DNA from: Curtanaerobium respiraculi
GTDB lineage: Bacteria; Actinomycetota; Coriobacteriia; Coriobacteriales; Eggerthellaceae
DNA length: 33,261 nucleotides
Direction of reading: 5' to 3'
Assembly: GCF_024609215.1 (NCBI RefSeq)
Contig: NZ_JANIPD030000009.1
Location: 1-33,261, forward strand
Part shown: positions 5,309 to 14,310 of the stretch, piece after piece
Position numbering within the stretch: the first letter of the stretch is position 1
Layout of the letters: each line of letters starts with the position of its first letter
Notes under the pieces: model-generated
Databases searched by the model: none
The model's input: only the letters and a program-made list of their open reading frames with translations
What the model was told of the DNA's origin: nothing
Position numbers and translations under genes: made by a program

Positions 5309-7066
5309 ATGGACAGCAGTATTCGCGGAGACATGCGCAGCAGCGCATGCGACGAAAAGACGGAGATGCCGATTGGAACCAGCGACTTGCACGATTCCGA
5401 GTTCCACGCCCTGATCGACGAGCGTATGCCGGGGAATCTCGTCGTACTCTCCTCTGAAAAGCACCTCCCCTGCCTTCACGCCAATCCGTCGTTCCTCGAT
5501 CTCCTTGGTTACAACAGCTTCGATGCCTTCCTGCTCGAGACGGGGGGCCTCTTCAAGAACTGCCTGCATGGAGGTGACGCTGACAAGTTCTCCTCATTCG
5601 TCAGGAGTCGCAGCGGCCCCGATAAGACCGCGGGAACGCCTACGGCGGAGTGCCGCCTGCGCAGGGAAGATGGCGGCTATATATGGACGAGAATCACCGC
5701 AAAGGCGCACGGACGATTTCCCGCGACCATTGTGTGCCTCATCGAGGACATGACCGAGGCGAAAGCCGCCGAGAAGGAGTTGAAAGATGCGATCCAAAGT
5801 CTCTCGGTGGAGAACAAGAGGCTCGGGGCTGTTCTCAACAACGTGCCGGTCGGCATATACACATGCCAGCTCTCCGAGCCCATTCGCATCGCCCGGTCCA
5901 ACGATGCCTTGTGCGCCATGACAGGCTACTCGCGCAGCGAGATGGAGACCCTGTTCGATGATGATTATAAGCTTGTGATTTGCGAGAGCGACCGCGAGGT
6001 GTACGCGGATGCTCTCAAAAGCCTCTCCGATCACCCCTGCTCTCGTACCATCGGGTACAGAATCAGGAAGAAGGATGGGAAGACCGTCGGTATCACGGAC
6101 TCCTTGAAGTCGGCACGCGACTTCTACGGCCGCATGTGGGCATGCGCGGTCGTCATGGGGGGTGACCCTGGGTCCCGATGCGTGGACGCATGCGCCAAGA
6201 TGGCAGAGCACGTCGCGCAGCCCATCGTCGGCGTGACGTGCGTCGGCGAAACGGTCTCGCTCGACTTCGCAAACATCCTCTTCCGCGCCTTGCCCATCGC
6301 GTCGCTCGGAGCATTCGGAGCGAACCCATCGGCCGGCTTGCCGATGTCGGCCGACGAAGGGGTATTGCACCATGTCAAGCAGAAGCTGAAGCCCTTGATC
6401 GACGGGCAAGATCTCATCGAGGAGGAAGTGGTCGGGCAAGGGCGGAGGCTTGGTGGAATAAGCGGCGTATCCGCAAGCGTCTACTTCCGGCAAGGAGGGA
6501 CCATCTCCGTCGCGATTGTTTTCGAAACGGAAGAGCTGAAGGGGATGGTGCAGCGGGCAACCGACTGCGTTCTCAGGACGGGTGGGCGAATCTGGCACGA
6601 TGTCCGGGTGACCACGTTCGGTTATTTCGACGTCCGCGTGGACGGTCGCCCCATCCCCTTCCGCAGCGCCAAGGCCAAGGAGCTACTGGCCTTTCTGGTC
6701 GACAGGCGGGGGGCGTTCGCATCCGCCGCCGACATCATCGCCGCGCTATGGGAGAACGAACCTGTGAACAAGGTTACGAGGGCCCGCTTGCGGAAGACGA
6801 TGATGAGGCTCGTCGACGAGCTATCGGTTTACGGCATCGAATACATAGTGGACTCTTCCCCGAAGGGCTAACGGCGCATCGTCCCCGAAAGGATCAGGTG
6901 CGACCTTTTCGACTTCCTGTCAGATGAAGACAAGTGCGCCGACTCGTTCAGGGGAGCTTACATGTCCGACTACTCTTGGGGCGAGTTCACGCTCGCCCAG
7001 CTGATGTGCAGTACCCCCAACGCCGTATCCGACAGCGAACGTCTTGCCGGGGGCGCTAACGAATGA
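5309..7066 (+). pseudogene. PAS-domain regulator with C-terminal winged helix, interrupted by in-frame TAA
   Basis: The frame runs through two PAS-like domains (residues about 35-150, with CRLRREDGGYIWTRITAKA and EDMTEAKAAEKEL; about 170-290, with YRIRKKDGKTVGITDSLKSA), a third weaker sensor-like segment (290-430), and an OmpR/SARP-type winged helix from about 430 (VTTFGYFDVRVDGRPIPFRS, AKELLAFLVDRRGAFASAAD). TAA at 6869-6871 stops it at SPKG, but the same frame continues with RRIVPERIRCDLFDFL and YMSDYSWGEFTLAQL to TGA 7064-7066, the normal end of such regulators. A Tyr codon (KG-Y-RR) is the likely ancestor, so this is a nonsense mutation in the wing of the DNA-binding domain. Full length would be 585 residues. 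It stands directly upstream of the pilus genes, so it was probably their activator. The start is uncertain because the Shine-Dalgarno at 5309 is weak. Confidence 0.75.
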
Positions 7067-7167
7067 TGTCACATGTTTGGAACGAGGACAAGACGAAGGG
7101 AAACGGCAGTTTTTTTATAAAGGAACTGAGCTGCATATCGTGTTTAGAAAATCAGGGGATTGGGGAC

Positions 7168-10100
7168 GTGGACACAAGCTGCAAGAAATATGTAGGTGCG
7201 GCGCGCAGCAGACGGAACGGTTTCTTAAGCGTACTGCTCGCGTTCTTGCTCGTCGTCTCGGCTGCGTGGCCATGCCCGCTTGCGCTGGCAGCAGGCGACG
7301 GGAACGTGACGAGCACCCAAGGTACGGAAGGTCCTGCTGAGGCAACGGCCACCGACGACGGAAAAGCGGGGGACGCAGGTGCCCCGGATTCGGGGGCGAG
7401 CTCCCCTGGTGATGATTCTGCCGTAGCCAATGACGGGCAGGGCGACGATACGAGCCTTGAAAGGCCCTCGTCTCCATCACTTTTTGCCACGGGTTCCGGG
7501 CAGGCTAATGAGGCCGATCTCACTGACAGCCTCAAGGTGAGGCTGGAATCAGATTTCGCGTCCTATGTCGCTGGGGATACGGCGGCTTTCACGCTGACCG
7601 TCATCAACAACGGTAACAAGAATATCGGAGCAGGCGAGATCACCGCCACGCCTGCCGTTCCCGATGCGACCCTGTCATCTGTCATCGCGGACCAGTTGGC
7701 AGCTCAGACCTTGGGCAAGGTCAACAAGAACGGCGGAGTTGCTACGGTCGTGTTCAGCATCACGATTCCCGAAGACCTCTTGTCCACGGACACGGATTTC
7801 GAAGCGGCGGTTTCCTATGTCGATGGCAAGACTCCTGTCGATGCGCAGGTCTCCCTGCCTTTCGAGATTTCTGCCGCGCATAAGGGGCTTGCCTGCATGA
7901 GTGCAACGGATGCGGGAACGCGGCTCTCGGGCTTTGCTGCCACATACGATGAGGACGTCCTTGCTGTACGCTATGGCCTCGTAAATTATGATGCGGCAAC
8001 CACGAGCTACACATTCGAGCTGAACGTCACAGGGCATATGGTTCCGAATGATGGAGGCGAGGATATCACCAGCGCGCTCTCCGCGCAATGGGGCCCGGCG
8101 CTGCCCGGAGCCCCTGCCGATGCGATGAGCGGATCGGGGTCGCTTGCCGGCAATTCCCCCGGCACGGGCGAAGTGAGCGTCGCCCTCGACCCTAAGGGCG
8201 ATCCTGGGGCCTTCAATGCCTACAGCGTCACCCTCACGGTAACTGACGGGAATGGCAATACGACTTCCAGGACCATCGACCTCTTGCGTGATCGTCTGGA
8301 TTTGAGCAACATCACTTGGGTCATCCGCGATGATACTAACGGGAACGGCAAGATCACCCAAAAGGGCACGGACTGGTTCAATGACCTCTACTACGACAAG
8401 GTGGCCGCCGACTCGCGTGTTCCCTTTAAGGATGCGGCGAGTTTTTGCGCCTACCTTGCCTCAGCGCCTACGGAAGAGGAAGCCCAGATGCGCTTGAACC
8501 GCTTTATCTGGGACATGTACGAGCCGCACAAAGGGATCGCAGGCGACTACGGTGATGCCAATATCCAGTGGCCGAAGGACAGCTTGTCGCCCTTCCACCA
8601 CCAACTTCAAAGCACGGTAGAGCGGATGGGCACATACACTCAGTCCGAGGCCGGCGTCACCCACGATGACGATTACTTCAGCAATCTGGTCAAGACGGCG
8701 GGTCCCGACCTGGGCGACGATAACGAGGACCGCACCTACACCATCGACCTGCACGCCGAAACCGATCCCGTCGCGACGCAGCCCGCCGTGTACGTCTTCA
8801 TGATCCCCAACCCGTGGCAGATGTTCGACGAACTTCACGCCATCACGCAGTCAGGCGGTAACACTGCCAAAGGCAGCATCCTTACAGCGGTAGACGAGAT
8901 GGCCTACCTCTACGACATCAAGAAAGCGCTCATACGCTTCACGGATTACCTGGAGTCGCAGGGCAGCAACGCCGCTATCGCTATCACCAACACCCAACAC
9001 GTTAAGAACGCCTATTCGATCGTCTCGTCAGGAGGGTACTTCACGACAGACATGGATGGCATGGCCGATGCGCTCGCTGGTTGGGATGTCTTCGGGGAGT
9101 GTGAGCATGTCCACTGGACCACGGAATCGCTCAAGAACGCCATAAACGGCCTTCCCACGGAGCTTTCGACATGGGAGGACGCAGAGGGCGTTCCTATCAA
9201 CCTGGACAACGTGACCAAGACCGTCATCGCTATCGGAGGCCCCACGGAGAACATCGACTCCGATCATGGCTACAAGGCGCCGCTCGATGACGGCAATACG
9301 AACTGGAACAACATCGACTATCTCTACGGCATTCGCACGGATACCGGCACCACGGAGGTGGCGTTGAACGGTCGCCCGTTATACTCGTGGCTCGACCGCA
9401 CCGATAACCAGGATCTCATCAAAGCGCATAACCCCTACTACACGTCCTACAACGACCCCGACAACCCGGCTTATTCGATCTGCACTTCCGAAGATGCGCT
9501 CTACAATCAATTCGTGAGCATCTACGAGAGGTCGTCGCACATCACTGGCACGACGACGTTCGGTGTTGTGGATGATGTCGTGCTCTCCGATACCGTGACC
9601 GACGAGTTCCAGGTGACGGGCGTCACTGCCACGTGGACCTCGGTCGATGGAACGACGGTAACGAGCACCTGGACTCCGCAGGGCGGAACGGCGGTTGGAA
9701 AGGGAGATCCCAACCCTGACGAGATAACCGTCACGGTGCACGGTGATGGCACGACAGGGGTATCCTGCGACTTCGGGCGCTTGACGGGTACGGGTGCGGC
9801 AGATGTTAGGATCGACGTAAGGGCAAAAGAAGATTACCTTGGCTCGAACAATGTCCTCACCAATGAGGGAACCCCTTCCATCAACTGGAGCCATACGAAC
9901 ACGCAGACGCAGGCCACTCGCGATTTCAGGGCAGACTTTACCCAGGAACCCTCTGCGAACGTTCCCCTGCTCCCCATGTCCGCTACCGGGAGAAGCAATT
10001 CCGGACGCGTTGGGACCACGTTCGATTTGGCGGATCATGCCACCTTCGATTCATTCGACTTGTTTAACGGGGCCTACGACCAACTTAATGGAACGCTAAC

Positions 10101-10851
10101 CATTTCTTGGGTTGAGATCGATACGGATGGCAACGAGGTGACCATTCCTGACGATCCCTCATATGCTTCAAGCACCTATACCGTGGTAGACGGAATGATA
10201 AGCGGCTCATTCAAGCTGCCCAGTTGCTCCGTCGTCTCCGATGTGGAGGCTACCCGCAACTTCCGCCTTAAGGTGGAATACCAGCCCGAGGACGCGACAA
10301 ACGGCATGATTCCTGTTTCCGGACGCACGGTCAATGCCGATGTGACTCTGAGCTGGATCAACGAGCTTGCCCTCTCCATCTTGAAGGTGGATGCCGATGA
10401 CAAGACACCGCTTCCGGGAGTGGGATTCGCCTTGTATGCCGATGATGGCGACGGGAAGTTCGATGCTGGCAAAGACCCGTCGGCAGATGTCTTCAAAGAT
10501 GCTGCCCTCACGGAAAAACTCACGGGCGACATCATCACGGATGCGAGCGGCAAGGCAGCCTTTTTCGGGCTCAAGCCCGGCACGTACTGGATTCAGGAAA
10601 CGAGCACGGTTGCCGGTTACCACATCCTCGATGGCGCGCTGAGGCTCCGAATCGCCGACGATGGGCGAGCCTACCTCACCCAGACGGGTGGGCAGGAGGC
10701 CGAGGTCACCGTGGAAGACGAAATACTCGCAAAAATCACCATCGAGAACCGGAAGATCCCCCCCCCTTGCCCGTATCCGGTACCGCAGGGGTCACGTTGC
10801 TCGTCATCCTCGGGGCCTCCATGCTGGCCCTGTCTGCGATTCTCCGGGTAG
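7168..10851 (+). CDS. Large secreted pilus tip/adhesin protein, anchor out of frame
   Basis: About 1227 residues from GTG 7168 (AGGGGAT upstream; ATG 7063 is in frame but adds 35 atypical residues before the signal peptide). Signal peptide FLSVLLAFLLVVSAAW with likely cleavage after ALA. Then a Ser/Asp/Gly-rich linker, a CARDB/DUF11-like beta domain (LESDFASYVAGDTAAFTLTV), a vWA-like region (VYVFMIPNPWQMFDELHAI to TVIAIGGPTEN) in which no DxSxS metal site is visible, further beta domains, and a SpaA/CnaB-type domain (ALSILKVDADDKTPLPGVGF; E-box TYWIQETSTVAGYH) able to form an isopeptide bond. The frame ends in an unnatural Cys/Pro/Ser tail because of the C9 tract at 10758; the correct LPVSG anchor is encoded in another frame. 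Followed by backbone pilin and sortases. Confidence 0.8.
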   Translation: MDTSCKKYVGAARSRRNGFLSVLLAFLLVVSAAWPCPLALAAGDGNVTSTQGTEGPAEATATDDGKAGDAGAPDSGASSPGDDSAVANDGQGDDTSLERPSSPSLFATGSGQANEADLTDSLKVRLESDFASYVAGDTAAFTLTVINNGNKNIGAGEITATPAVPDATLSSVIADQLAAQTLGKVNKNGGVATVVFSITIPEDLLSTDTDFEAAVSYVDGKTPVDAQVSLPFEISAAHKGLACMSATDAGTRLSGFAATYDEDVLAVRYGLVNYDAATTSYTFELNVTGHMVPNDGGEDITSALSAQWGPALPGAPADAMSGSGSLAGNSPGTGEVSVALDPKGDPGAFNAYSVTLTVTDGNGNTTSRTIDLLRDRLDLSNITWVIRDDTNGNGKITQKGTDWFNDLYYDKVAADSRVPFKDAASFCAYLASAPTEEEAQMRLNRFIWDMYEPHKGIAGDYGDANIQWPKDSLSPFHHQLQSTVERMGTYTQSEAGVTHDDDYFSNLVKTAGPDLGDDNEDRTYTIDLHAETDPVATQPAVYVFMIPNPWQMFDELHAITQSGGNTAKGSILTAVDEMAYLYDIKKALIRFTDYLESQGSNAAIAITNTQHVKNAYSIVSSGGYFTTDMDGMADALAGWDVFGECEHVHWTTESLKNAINGLPTELSTWEDAEGVPINLDNVTKTVIAIGGPTENIDSDHGYKAPLDDGNTNWNNIDYLYGIRTDTGTTEVALNGRPLYSWLDRTDNQDLIKAHNPYYTSYNDPDNPAYSICTSEDALYNQFVSIYERSSHITGTTTFGVVDDVVLSDTVTDEFQVTGVTATWTSVDGTTVTSTWTPQGGTAVGKGDPNPDEITVTVHGDGTTGVSCDFGRLTGTGAADVRIDVRAKEDYLGSNNVLTNEGTPSINWSHTNTQTQATRDFRADFTQEPSANVPLLPMSATGRSNSGRVGTTFDLADHATFDSFDLFNGAYDQLNGTLTISWVEIDTDGNEVTIPDDPSYASSTYTVVDGMISGSFKLPSCSVVSDVEATRNFRLKVEYQPEDATNGMIPVSGRTVNADVTLSWINELALSILKVDADDKTPLPGVGFALYADDGDGKFDAGKDPSADVFKDAALTEKLTGDIITDASGKAAFFGLKPGTYWIQETSTVAGYHILDGALRLRIADDGRAYLTQTGGQEAEVTVEDEILAKITIENRKIPPPCPYPVPQGSRCSSSSGPPCWPCLRFSG
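10758..10766 (+). repeat. C9 homopolymer switching the cell-wall anchor in and out of frame
   Basis: Nine consecutive C residues lie immediately before the anchor-coding sequence. With nine, translation ends at 10851 in a non-family tail. With ten or seven, translation continues into LPVSG and a membrane segment. With eight, it enters the third frame and stops near 10861. Long C tracts in surface-protein genes are classic slipped-strand phase-variation sites, but they are also hot spots for sequencing error. Confidence 0.7.
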
Positions 10852-10889
10852 CCAATCGTAGAAAAGGAGGAACACATTCTGTCCATTGA
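10767..10889 (+). other. Out-of-frame sortase anchor: LPVSG, membrane helix, basic tail
   Basis: Starting at TTG 10767 the alternative frame reads LPVSGTAG, a hydrophobic helix VTLLVILGASMLALSAIL, then RVANRRKGG, and stops at TGA 10887-10889. This is a complete LPXTG-type sorting signal equivalent to the LPVTG end of the next gene. It proves that the upstream gene was, or can be, cell-wall anchored. Confidence 0.8.
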
Positions 10890-10974: not shown

Positions 10975-12402
10975 ATGAAAAAGAAATCATCACAGGGAAT
11001 CAGGAAGGTTCTATCGGCCCTGCTGCCCCTCGCACTGGCATTCGCCATGACGCCCGTGGCCGCATTCGCAACGCCCACGAGTGCAACGGATGTTGCCGAT
11101 AGCGAAGTGACCATCACCGGCCTGCTCGACGGCGACATGGTGAGCGCTTACTTGATCGCCGATGCCGACATCGATGCCACCAACAACCTGAGCTATACGT
11201 TCGCCACGAACGTGCCCGCCCCATACAACACGGTGGACGGCCTCACCGCCATCGCCAGCGACGGGAACTCGTTCACGCAGGGGACCGATATGCAGAACGC
11301 GGCGGCCGCCATCGCCAACGCGATTGCGACCGGTTCGGCGACAGCCTCCGCAACCGCGTCCGGTACAAGCGCCACCCTGACCCTCGGCAGCGGCTACTAC
11401 CTGGTGCGCGTCACCTCGACCAGCGGCGAGACCCGCGTCTACCAGAACATGGTCGTCGACGTGAGCCCCAAGGCCGCAGCCGGGACATACGCCCCCGCTG
11501 ACGACCAAACCCTCGACGTGAAGAAGACCGACGTCACCGTGATCAAGACCGTCGGTGCCAACTACGAGCCGAAGACCGACGCCTACAGCGTGGGCGACGT
11601 CGTCCCCTTCAAGGTCGAGACCGTCATCCCGAACTATCCCGCTGATTCGCTCAACGCGACGTTCGTCATCGGCGACAAGCCTACCGCCGGCCTCAAGATC
11701 GACACCGCTTCGATCGCCGTTGCCAGCGCTGATACGGCGGGCTATACCCTTACATCGACGACCGACGGCTACACCATCACCTTCGAAAAGGATTACATCC
11801 TCGCCCATCCCGGCGAGAGCATCACGGTGACCTACAACGCCACGCTCACTTCCGATGCGTTTTCTCACAGCGCGACCGATGTCACCGGCAACACTGCGGA
11901 GGTCACCTTCAACCCCAATCCCTACAGCAACACGACCGTCACGCCCGACAGCACCACCACCGTCCAGACCTACGGCTACGTGTTCAAGAAGGTAGATGCA
12001 GCTGGTGAGCCGCTTGCGAACGCAACATTCACCATCACCCTGGACAACGGCACCGTGCTCGCTTCCACCTCCGACGCCAATGGCTACGTTTGGTTCGAGG
12101 ACTTGGCTGCCGGCACCTATACCGCCAAGGAGACCACGGTGCCCGCGGGGCATCTGAAAGCTCCCGACCAGACCTTCACGTTGAGCTCGACCACTGCGAC
12201 GGCCGACAACCCGGCCACCACGGACGTGACCGAGAACAACTACCTCGTCGCTGCCGAGAACGTCGTCGACCCCGACCAGCCCAAGCTGCCCGTAACCGGT
12301 GGTGCCGGGACTCTGGCGCTCACGCTCGCGGGTGTGGCGCTGGTGGGCGGCTCCCTGTTCGTCATCTGCCGCCTCGCGCGCAAGAAGAACGAACAGCTGT
12401 AG
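10975..12402 (+). CDS. LPXTG-anchored major (backbone) pilin
   Basis: A 475-residue sortase-dependent pilin. Signal peptide: basic MKKKSSQGIRK, hydrophobic VLSALLPLALAFAMTPVAA, cleavage near AFA. An N-terminal domain (about 30-165) is followed by a fimbrial-isopeptide-type domain (about 175-325, beginning near DVTVIKTVGANYEPK), a CnaB/SpaA-type domain (about 330-430, YVFKKVDAAGEPLANATF and E-box YTAKETTVPAGH), the sorting motif LPVTG at 438-442, a hydrophobic helix and tail RLARKKNEQL. Lys/Asn/Glu in the CnaB domain would form internal isopeptide bonds. No canonical WxxxVxVYPK pilin motif was found, so the linking lysine is uncertain. Two class C sortases follow and should polymerise it. Confidence 0.9.
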   Translation: MKKKSSQGIRKVLSALLPLALAFAMTPVAAFATPTSATDVADSEVTITGLLDGDMVSAYLIADADIDATNNLSYTFATNVPAPYNTVDGLTAIASDGNSFTQGTDMQNAAAAIANAIATGSATASATASGTSATLTLGSGYYLVRVTSTSGETRVYQNMVVDVSPKAAAGTYAPADDQTLDVKKTDVTVIKTVGANYEPKTDAYSVGDVVPFKVETVIPNYPADSLNATFVIGDKPTAGLKIDTASIAVASADTAGYTLTSTTDGYTITFEKDYILAHPGESITVTYNATLTSDAFSHSATDVTGNTAEVTFNPNPYSNTTVTPDSTTTVQTYGYVFKKVDAAGEPLANATFTITLDNGTVLASTSDANGYVWFEDLAAGTYTAKETTVPAGHLKAPDQTFTLSSTTATADNPATTDVTENNYLVAAENVVDPDQPKLPVTGGAGTLALTLAGVALVGGSLFVICRLARKKNEQL

Positions 12403-12501: not shown

Positions 12502-13374
12502 ATGAAGCGGAAGATAGCCATAGCATGCGCCACGGCGTTCCTTCTCCTCGGCGTCGCCTGCTTGAGCTACCCGGTGGTCAGCAACGCCATCATCCATGTG
12601 GCACAGGGGCAGGTCGCCAAGGAGCACGTCGAAGCGGAACGTGCGGTCGACACAACGGAGCTCGAGGCCATGCGGCGGCAGGCGTACGGGTACAACGAGA
12701 ACCTGCTGGCGGGGAAGGTCACCGTGACCGACCCGTTCGATCCCGACAGGATCACGGTCGGAGAGGCCGAGTACGACTCCACCCTGAACGTAACCGGCGA
12801 TGGCGTCATGGCCGTCATCAGGGCTCCCAAGATCGACATAACCCTCCCCATATACCACGGCGTGGGCGACAAGGTGCTCGAGCACGGCGTCGGGCACCTC
12901 CCGTCAACGTCCCTGCCAATCGGGGGCGCCTCGTCGCACTGCGTGCTGGCCGGCCACACCGGGTTGCCGTCCGTGAAGATATTCGACGAGATCGGTCGCT
13001 TGGAAGAGGGCGACTATTTTGCGATAGAGGTGCTTGGCGAAGAGCACGGCTACCGTGTCGACGCCGTCGAGGTCGTCCTTCCCGAAGACACCGACTCCCT
13101 CGCGATTGTTCCGGGAGCGGACAAGGTCACTCTCGCGACCTGCACCCCCTATGGCGTGAACAGCCACCGTCTCCTCGTCCACGCCAGCCGCTGCGAGCTG
13201 CCCGACGGGTGGGACCAAGGCGGATCTCCCGCTCTCGAAGGGACGGCGGAAGGCGTTTCCCCGTGGCCGACTGTCGCGATTCTTTTCACAGTCGCCGTGC
13301 TCGTCGCCGTGACAGCGCTCCTGCTTCGCAGGCGCGCACGGAATGCCCGTGACGTCAGATGCCCGAGGAGGTAG
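12502..13374 (+). CDS. Class C (pilin-polymerising) sortase
   Basis: A 290-residue membrane transpeptidase. N-terminal membrane helix (IAIACATAFLLLGVACLSY), then the sortase barrel with catalytic His in VLAGHTGLP, catalytic Cys in TLATCTPYG and Arg in NSHRLLVHASR. A C-terminal helix (VAILFTVAVLVAVTALLL) followed by basic RRRARNARD is typical of class C. It would cleave LPXTG-like motifs between Thr/Ser and Gly and join pilin subunits. The possible lid sequence before the core contains TDPFDPDRI, reminiscent of the DPF/W lid of pilus sortases. ATG 12502 with AGGGG upstream. The next sortase starts three bases after this stop. Confidence 0.92.
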   Translation: MKRKIAIACATAFLLLGVACLSYPVVSNAIIHVAQGQVAKEHVEAERAVDTTELEAMRRQAYGYNENLLAGKVTVTDPFDPDRITVGEAEYDSTLNVTGDGVMAVIRAPKIDITLPIYHGVGDKVLEHGVGHLPSTSLPIGGASSHCVLAGHTGLPSVKIFDEIGRLEEGDYFAIEVLGEEHGYRVDAVEVVLPEDTDSLAIVPGADKVTLATCTPYGVNSHRLLVHASRCELPDGWDQGGSPALEGTAEGVSPWPTVAILFTVAVLVAVTALLLRRRARNARDVRCPRR

Positions 13375-13377
13375 CAT

Positions 13378-14310
13378 GTGGTGATGCGTTCTACCGATGC
13401 TGGGGGAAGGACCCGCAAACGTGGCTTCGCGATGGCCCTGATGACCGTCGCACTCGCCATCGGGCTGGTCCTCATCTACTTGCCCGACATGGAAGGCGCC
13501 GTCTCCCAGCATAGGTTTGACAAGAAGATTGACGAGATCGACGCCGTAGCGGGCGAGCTGGCGTCGGGTGGATCCCGTCTGTCCGATGAGGCAGCGGCGT
13601 ATTCCGAGCTGTTTTCCGCCTGCGAGGCATACAACCGCATCCTGGCAGGAGAGGGGCAGCGGCCGAACGATCCGTTCGCGTATTCGGGCGCCGGGGAGAC
13701 GTTCTCCAACTTGGGCGCCCCCGACGGGCTCGTCGGCTATCTCTCGGTTCCCTCCATCTGCTGCGATCTCCCTCTTTATTTCGGCTCCACCTACGAGCAC
13801 ATGGCGCAGGGGGCGACCATCGTCGCCGGAACCTCGGTTCCGTTGGGGGAACTGAACTCCAACTGCGTGATCGCAGCGCACAGGGGCTGGTCGGGTGCTG
13901 CCATGTTCCGTGACATCGAGGAGCTGGAAACCGGCGATGCTGTGACCATCGCTACCCCTTGGGACACGCTGGAATACCGGGTGGAATCATTCAAGGTAGT
14001 CGAACCCGGCGACACAGAGTCGATCCTCATACAGCCGGGGCGGGACATGGTGACCCTCCTGACCTGCCATCCGTACGGCCCCAACGCCAGCAGATATCTC
14101 GTCTACTGCTCCCGCGACATAGGGAACTGGGAGCCCGCCGTGGAGGGCGGAAGCGGGGTGGCGGAAGCAGGCGGGGAAACGCGCCCCGCCACGCTTCCGG
14201 AAATCGAGAAGGGAGTCAAGAGGGCGGTCAGCGTAGTCCTGGCGCTCTCGCTTCTCACCTTTCTCGGGAGGGTGGCCGTGTCTAGGCTGCAGCGTAAATC
14301 GGGAAGGTGA
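13378..14310 (+). CDS. Second class C sortase
   Basis: A 310-residue sortase with an N-terminal helix (MALMTVALAIGLVLIYL), a lid-like segment PNDPFAYSG, catalytic His in VIAAHRGW, Cys in TLLTCHPYG and Arg in SRYLVYCSR, and a C-terminal helix with tail SRLQRKSGR. GGAGG at 13367-13371, inside the preceding gene, serves GTG 13378 or GTG 13381; ATG 13384 is in frame but further from it. An ATG at 13376 is in another frame and stops at once. Two sortases for two substrates (LPVTG backbone and LPVSG tip protein) suggest a division of labour between polymerisation and tip attachment. Confidence 0.92.
   Translation: MVMRSTDAGGRTRKRGFAMALMTVALAIGLVLIYLPDMEGAVSQHRFDKKIDEIDAVAGELASGGSRLSDEAAAYSELFSACEAYNRILAGEGQRPNDPFAYSGAGETFSNLGAPDGLVGYLSVPSICCDLPLYFGSTYEHMAQGATIVAGTSVPLGELNSNCVIAAHRGWSGAAMFRDIEELETGDAVTIATPWDTLEYRVESFKVVEPGDTESILIQPGRDMVTLLTCHPYGPNASRYLVYCSRDIGNWEPAVEGGSGVAEAGGETRPATLPEIEKGVKRAVSVVLALSLLTFLGRVAVSRLQRKSGR

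What the first reader, a model, noticed from the sequence alone, without database searches (positions are those of the whole stretch)
10758..10889. C9 tract as a possible phase switch between secreted and wall-anchored pilus tip protein
The large surface protein ends in a non-family Cys/Pro/Ser tail, while another frame directly after nine Cs encodes a perfect sorting signal (LPVSG, hydrophobic helix, basic tail, stop at 10889). Ten or seven Cs restore it; nine or eight do not. The rest of the protein (about 1215 codons) is open. Slippage here would not turn the protein off but switch it between released and covalently displayed, an unusual form of phase variation.
Basis: partly seen in the sequence, partly recalled or inferred. 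Interest (0 to 1): 0.75.

Follow-up and report, generated by a model that had tools for sequence, protein, structure and literature searches.

The report
Possible anchoring switch in pilus protein
A run of nine Cs sits exactly where a bacterial pilus protein gains its wall-anchoring tail, so a small change in its length could decide whether the protein stays on the cell or is released; the layout is real but the switching itself is unproven.

Summary
C9 lies at 10758-10766. The 1,262-aa frame from 7063 runs through it into a Cys/Pro/Ser tail ending at 10851; another frame, starting on the base after the tract, encodes LPVSG, a hydrophobic helix, a basic tail and a stop at 10889. The gene heads a sortase-pilus operon (backbone pilin, two class C sortases). 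The two closest homologues, both in one related genome, carry such a tail in frame without a homopolymer, so the tail is very probably an authentic sorting signal. C9 alone is not beyond chance; its position is.

Best reading (0.5): a slippage-prone tract that toggles a pilus tip between anchorable and released forms, leaving backbone and sortases untouched. Support: MutS_I not detected, a probable excess of long C/G runs, and a G11 run that likewise splits a response-regulator gene beside a large surface protein. Against: no length variation could be observed, the tract is not conserved, and no second C-tract/sorting-signal pair appeared in 396 class genomes. Assembly error, one-off damage and -1 frameshifting remain open.

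Homopolymer switching of a sortase pilus is published for Bifidobacterium breve, there upstream in the gene and polar; the 3' anchoring position is the new variant.

The parts
10758..10766 (+). C9 homopolymer at the junction of the long frame and the sorting-signal frame
7063..10851 (+). Long surface-protein frame as assembled (probable pilus tip or ancillary pilin), ending in an unanchored Cys/Pro/Ser tail; a GTG at 7168 is a possible later start
   Evidence: SpaA domain PF17802 at residues 1104-1204, 55.4 bits; C-terminal part matches solved pilins and surface proteins by sequence
10767..10889 (+). Sorting-signal tail in another frame: LPVSG, hydrophobic helix, basic end, stop
   Evidence: Pfam anchor 16.7 bits, under the cut-off
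10975..12402 (+). Backbone pilin with in-frame LPVTG signal
   Evidence: Pfam GramPos_pilinBB 41.3, SpaA 54.6 and Gram_pos_anchor 25.7 bits, over cut-offs; NCBIfam TIGR04226 60.9 over cut-off, NF033902 major pilin 76.4 under its cut-off of 95
12502..13374 (+). Class C sortase
   Evidence: NCBIfam NF033745 238.8 bits, cut-off 160
13378..14310 (+). Class C sortase
   Evidence: NCBIfam NF033745 172.9 bits, cut-off 160
10761..10767 (+). Heptamer C CCC CCT in 0-frame phase, the possible -1 frameshift site of a rival explanation
   Evidence: one of four folded stretches stands out from shuffles

Best explanation
The C9 tract is a slippage-prone junction at the 3' end of a pilus tip gene. Slippage during replication moves the last 40 codons in or out of frame. 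In one state the protein ends in a sorting signal and can be joined to the pilus or wall by the operon's class C sortases; in the assembled state it ends in a short Cys/Pro/Ser tail and would be exported but not anchored. Both stops lie before the backbone gene, so backbone and sortases should be made in either state: the switch would change pilus composition (tipped or untipped, plus released protein), not pilus production. Shown: tract, frames, tail, operon, in-frame tails in homologues, no MutS_I detected. Inferred: that the length varies, that it varies reversibly, that the unanchored form is released and works, that the protein is the tip.
For: Position and frames. Filter hits 0 of 6,535 frames elsewhere against this tail. 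In-frame sorting signals at the same place in both G042 homologues and in further SpaA-domain hits. Long frame otherwise open and tail undamaged up to its own stop, so no other visible decay. MutS_I in 0 of 60 genomes including this one, 11 of 14 controls positive. Eight C/G runs of 9 or more against about 0.6-1.2 expected from the steeper decline ratios. A G11 run splits a response regulator in the same way: receiver domain before, LytTR domain after in another frame, and its G029 homologue (47% identical) is continuous there. Precedent: replication slippage at G tracts in two B. breve sortase-pilus genes (PMC9187656).
Against: No length variation was seen, since no reads or second strain were available. 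The tract is absent from the two closest homologues and from the last 300 nt of 14 of 14 further hits with a readable end. No second C-tract plus sorting signal was found in 396 class genomes, none with G. With the shallowest decline ratio the excess of long runs is not significant (4.9 expected, P 0.12), and 127 of 138 family genomes have runs of 9 or more, many of them far more than this one. Nine is short for a C tract; in P. acnes tract lengths followed clades, which its authors read as slow accumulation rather than active modification (PMC4746626, passages).
Confidence: 0.5

Rival explanations
1. Assembly or sequencing error in the tract length: the real gene is in frame and the protein is always anchored.
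For: The genome is a 44-contig draft of unknown sequencing method; homopolymers are where such errors fall, and database tract lengths can differ from the real ones (PMC9187656, Discussion). The homologues are in frame. The two clear frame breaks at long runs in this genome (this one and the G11 at C6) could share one technical cause.
Against: Other long runs lie in open frames (an AraC-type gene at C2). A C9 that is really nine, ten or another number remains a long tract at this junction, so an error in length would not remove its potential to slip.
Confidence: 0.2
2. One-off frameshift that has simply lost the anchor in this strain; a gene on the way to decay, with no switching.
For: The tract is particular to this lineage and the same genome has other damaged genes: an in-frame stop in the regulator-like gene upstream and in the C27 LPxTG gene.
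Against: No second lesion in the roughly 1,200 codons before the tract or in the tail. The lesion lies in the one tract of nine in the window (region list).
Confidence: 0.2
3. Programmed -1 ribosomal frameshifting (or transcriptional slippage) at the C run: both forms are made from one sequence in a fixed ratio, without any change of DNA.
For: The tail is in the -1 frame and the 0-frame codons contain a heptamer of the X XXY YYZ form, C CCC CCT, at 10761. GGAAG lies 5 nt upstream, a spacing that I recall from dnaX. RNA 10772-10860 folds better than most shuffles (z -2.06; 6 of 200 as good).
Against: The other three stretches folded are unremarkable (z -0.96, -0.13, -0.56). Any C9 in this phase gives the heptamer. 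Proline heptamers are, from recall, poor -1 sites. No such site in the two homologues.
Confidence: 0.1

Closest known systems
Bifidobacterium breve UCC2003 sortase-pilus genes bbr_0113 and bbr_1889 (PMC9187656: abstract, three sections in full, passages)
   Same: Homopolymer G/C tract in the first gene of a sortase-pilus cluster of a gut actinobacterium; signal peptide and LPXTG are in different frames as annotated; mixed tract lengths measured in a population.
   Different: There the tract lies in the upstream part (for bbr_1889 after a 65-aa ORF), so the wrong frame gives a short peptide and is polar on the later genes: pilus ON or OFF. Here the tract is at the 3' end and only the anchor is affected. 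Variation was measured there, not here.
Streptococcus pneumoniae TIGR4 NanA (PMC8049478, passages)
   Same: Frameshift before the LPxTG region gives a secreted instead of a wall-bound protein.
   Different: Described as an anomaly of that strain, not as a switch; the passages read mention no homopolymer; an enzyme, not a pilin.
Homopolymer tracts of Gardnerella spp. (PMC11287997, passages) and Propionibacterium acnes (PMC3224659 and PMC4746626, passages)
   Same: G/C tracts in or before surface-protein genes of Actinomycetota, variable between strains or in culture.
   Different: In the cases seen the tracts lie in promoters or near the 5' end, or simply truncate the protein; no switch of anchoring is described in the passages read.
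5' homopolymer switches such as Listeria inlA (PMC2831843, passages)
   Same: Slippage in a coding homopolymer toggles a sortase-anchored surface protein.
   Different: Poly(A) at the 5' end; the out-of-frame product is an 8-aa peptide.

Membership tests
Sortase-assembled (SpaA-type) pilus operon | Dedicated class C sortase in the cluster | tested here: met
   Two, 238.8 and 172.9 bits against a cut-off of 160
Sortase-assembled (SpaA-type) pilus operon | Backbone pilin with isopeptide domains and in-frame LPXTG signal | tested here: met
   TIGR04226, GramPos_pilinBB and Gram_pos_anchor over cut-off; NF033902 under its cut-off
Sortase-assembled (SpaA-type) pilus operon | Tip or ancillary pilin with its own sorting signal | tested here: inconclusive
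   SpaA domain present, signal present but in another frame as assembled
Homopolymer contingency (phase-variable) locus | Long homopolymer in the coding region, with the frames after it giving different products | tested here: met
   C9; tail in frame offset 2, the assembled frame stops at 10851
Homopolymer contingency (phase-variable) locus | Tract length varies between cells or strains | not testable with these tools
   No reads; one genome per species is held; pattern search in viral contigs found no other copy
Homopolymer contingency (phase-variable) locus | Tract kept at the same place in relatives | tested here: not met
   Absent in both G042 homologues and in the last 300 nt of 14 of 14 further readable hits. 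Recurrence is usual but not strictly required of such loci
Programmed -1 ribosomal frameshift site | X XXY YYZ heptamer in the 0 frame with a downstream stimulatory structure | tested here: inconclusive
   Heptamer present; one of four folded stretches has z -2.06, the others do not stand out
Programmed -1 ribosomal frameshift site | Site conserved in homologues | tested here: not met
   Both G042 homologues are in frame with no such site

The most novel reading that the evidence does not exclude
A contingency locus whose output is anchoring, not expression: a 3' C tract reversibly swaps a pilus tip between a sortase substrate and a released protein, giving tipped and untipped pili in one clone, in a genome where other long G/C runs sit inside a response regulator and in front of another LPxTG protein.
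Probability: 0.35. Interest if true: 0.72.

Novelty: new variant of a known kind. Interest (0 to 1): 0.5.

Why it matters
If real, it is phase variation of where a protein ends up: the pilus tip is alternately displayed and shed while the rest of the pilus is made as before. That differs from the ON/OFF pilus switch of B. breve and could be tested directly by counting tract lengths in reads. It would also add a Coriobacteriia genome to the Actinomycetota for which homopolymer switching of surface proteins is proposed.

Tried and rejected
Rejected: that the tail is a chance frame (and the homologues). Rejected for the patterns used: that C-tract plus sorting signal recurs in the class. 10 of 396 genomes matched, one being this genome; all 9 other places were read (the G142 place was fetched) and, judged by eye, none has a sorting-signal tail. 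The nearest is L114, with a short hydrophobic stretch and RRGR, but its frame opens only 11 residues before the run. The patterns fix codon shapes and would miss other forms; the G version matched 0 of 396.

Led nowhere: genome contigs with the protein alone (no relative) and with the two-row alignment (one locus, letter for letter the G042 contig); viral contigs (none); plasmids (none); PDB by sequence, where 12 of 13 listed matches are to the C-terminal third of the profile and one, at E 0.57, is elsewhere. Structure prediction did not run: machine busy. The G038 stretch L068 was fetched and not analysed. Promoter and terminator scan: no more sites than in shuffles.

Literature: ten searches of the open-licence library listed no paper that I recognised as describing homopolymer switching of a sorting signal at the 3' end; the claim goes no further than these searches. 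'Eggerthella' with 'phase variation' and 'homopolymer' gave 0 papers.

Full report
What was checked. The long frame passes ATC CCC CCC CCT TGC and stops at 10851. The tail frame begins at 10767, the base after the tract, and reads LPVSGTAGVTLLVILGASMLALSAILRVANRRKGGTHSVH, stop at 10889. The third frame also stops early and holds no such signal. I do not list tract lengths that would bring the tail into frame.

Is it chance? The run alone is not striking: 34 of 100 shuffles of the window had at least two C8 matches, and 67 of 300 Markov resamples had a C/G run of 9 or more. The tail is striking: a sorting-signal filter hit 0 of 6,535 stop-terminated frames in 400 kb of the same genome, and in the window it hit only this tail and the backbone pilin. 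The filter is strict: it found nothing in the C4, C2 and C27 stretches where Pfam's anchor model matches. Pfam scores the tail at 16.7 bits, under its cut-off of 20. A rough, after-the-fact estimate that one of eight long runs falls within 15 nt of one of eight sorting signals is 4e-4 (the eight signals are an assumption).

Context. The gene is followed by a backbone pilin with in-frame LPVTG (10975-12402) and two class C sortases. The long protein has a SpaA domain before the tract (residues 1104-1204), and by sequence that part matches solved pilins and surface proteins. Being the first and largest gene of the cluster, it is probably the tip or an ancillary pilin; that is inference. The two stops lie 123 and 85 nt before the backbone start, so the backbone should be translated in either state (inference from coordinates).

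Relatives. Among 138 genomes of the family, two matched at E 1e-25 or better: this one and G042, whose full-length homologue is 50% identical. The G042 contig is letter for letter JAUNCQ010000062.1, a MAG titled Coriobacteriia bacterium S22M_St_35; that is how the class is known, and the species is not. That gene ends ...IVVENTHAPDLPLAG, helix, RRRRR, in frame and without a homopolymer. G042 has a second, partial homologue on contig C20, which sits before a backbone pilin and ends ...VTVDNYKVEPLPRAG, helix, basic end, also in frame and without a homopolymer; what follows the backbone looks like the start of a sortase. The other hits (23 of 100 genomes matched at E 0.001, most over the SpaA part only) were checked at the end: of 24 places given to the script, C20 included, 14 had a readable C-terminus (two of these, L035 and L036, look like a wrong strand choice), 10 ran off the stretch; 0 of the 14 had a C/G run of 7 or more in the last 300 nt, and 7, C20 included, end by eye in an in-frame sorting-type tail within 80 residues of the match. 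So intact tails at this place are usual and the tract is particular to this lineage. One genome per species is held; the one other genome of the genus, G001, has no match.

How singular is it? In 396 class genomes the pattern C8, 0-9 bases, then codons shaped like LPx[TSA]G matched in 10. The 9 places outside this genome were all read, and none looks like a sorting signal. The G version matched in 0 of 396.

The genome's other runs. C/G runs of exactly 7, exactly 8, and 9 or more number 49, 7 and 8 (counted). A 400-kb sample has 2,656 runs of 4, 719 of 5, 103 of 6 and 11 of 7. The declines from 5 to 6 and 6 to 7 predict 1.2 and 0.6 runs of 9 or more; the decline from 4 to 5 predicts 4.9, and then the excess is not significant (P 0.12). 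The eight are: this one; a G11 at C6 inside a response regulator, receiver domain before and LytTR domain after in another frame, beside a GHKL kinase and a 2,305-aa FctA/VWA protein that ends in MPLTG and a helix; a G10 at C27, 76 nt before a possible start of a Cna_B and collagen-binding gene; a C9 within an AraC-type gene, in an open frame; a G9 at the end of an N6-methylase gene, next to what looks by eye like a specificity-subunit remnant; a C9 in front of a FAD-binding protein, between divergent frames; a C9 in the leader of a gene that I take by eye for a peptidase; and a C9 abutting a G7. It reads like a list of contingency loci, but it was described after the fact and without a control list. 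Against a special status of this genome, 127 of 138 family genomes have runs of 9 or more and many have far more; and the G029 homologue of the regulator, 47% identical, has no such run.

Repair. MutS_I, the mismatch-binding domain of MutS, was found in 0 of 60 genomes, this one included; 11 of 14 controls were positive. That lack of MutS raises slippage in homopolymers is recalled knowledge.

Mechanism. Replication slippage fits the tract, the otherwise undamaged frames, the missing MutS_I and the B. breve precedent, where Maximum Depth Sequencing showed mixed lengths at pilus loci (PMC9187656). The effect differs: in B. breve the wrong frame ends the protein early and is polar, hence ON/OFF; here the protein lacks only its anchor. 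By the general scheme of sortase pili (recalled), a tip without a sorting signal cannot be joined to the backbone and would leave the cell. -1 frameshifting is possible on paper, but nothing shows that it is used. In a 44-contig draft a wrong tract length cannot be excluded.

Verdict. Ordinary in its ingredients, unusual in where they meet.

Noticed in passing
L067:4049-4832 (G000:C6), run at L067:4574-4584: A G11 run splits a LytTR-type response-regulator gene: receiver domain before it, LytTR domain after it in another frame; a GHKL kinase and a 2,305-aa FctA/VWA surface protein follow. The G029 homologue is continuous without a G run.
   Followed up: partly
L060:2287-2296 and L060:4341-4343 (G000:C27): G10 run 76 nt before a possible start of a Cna_B/collagen-binding gene, which is cut by an in-frame TGA, with Cna_B and an anchor-like end after it in the same frame.
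   Followed up: partly
window 5309-7066: A PAS-domain, regulator-like gene just before the pilus gene has an in-frame stop ending at 6871; the same frame stays open after it to 7066.
   Followed up: no
L066 (G000:C5:116000-125878): Three sorting-signal hits in about 10 kb, on frames of 591, 1,178 and 118 aa: perhaps a second pilus locus.
   Followed up: no
L062 around 10850, - strand (G042:C20): The partial pilus-gene homologue has an open frame of only 517 aa, and by eye its coding continues upstream in another frame.
   Followed up: no
G000:C11:60240-60247 (L022): G8 (on the coding strand) directly before the start region of a lipoprotein-like gene, where a ribosome-binding site would lie.
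   Followed up: no
138 family genomes: C/G runs of 9 or more vary from 0 to 610 nine-base matches per genome, also between species of one genus; 127 of 138 genomes have at least one.
   Followed up: no
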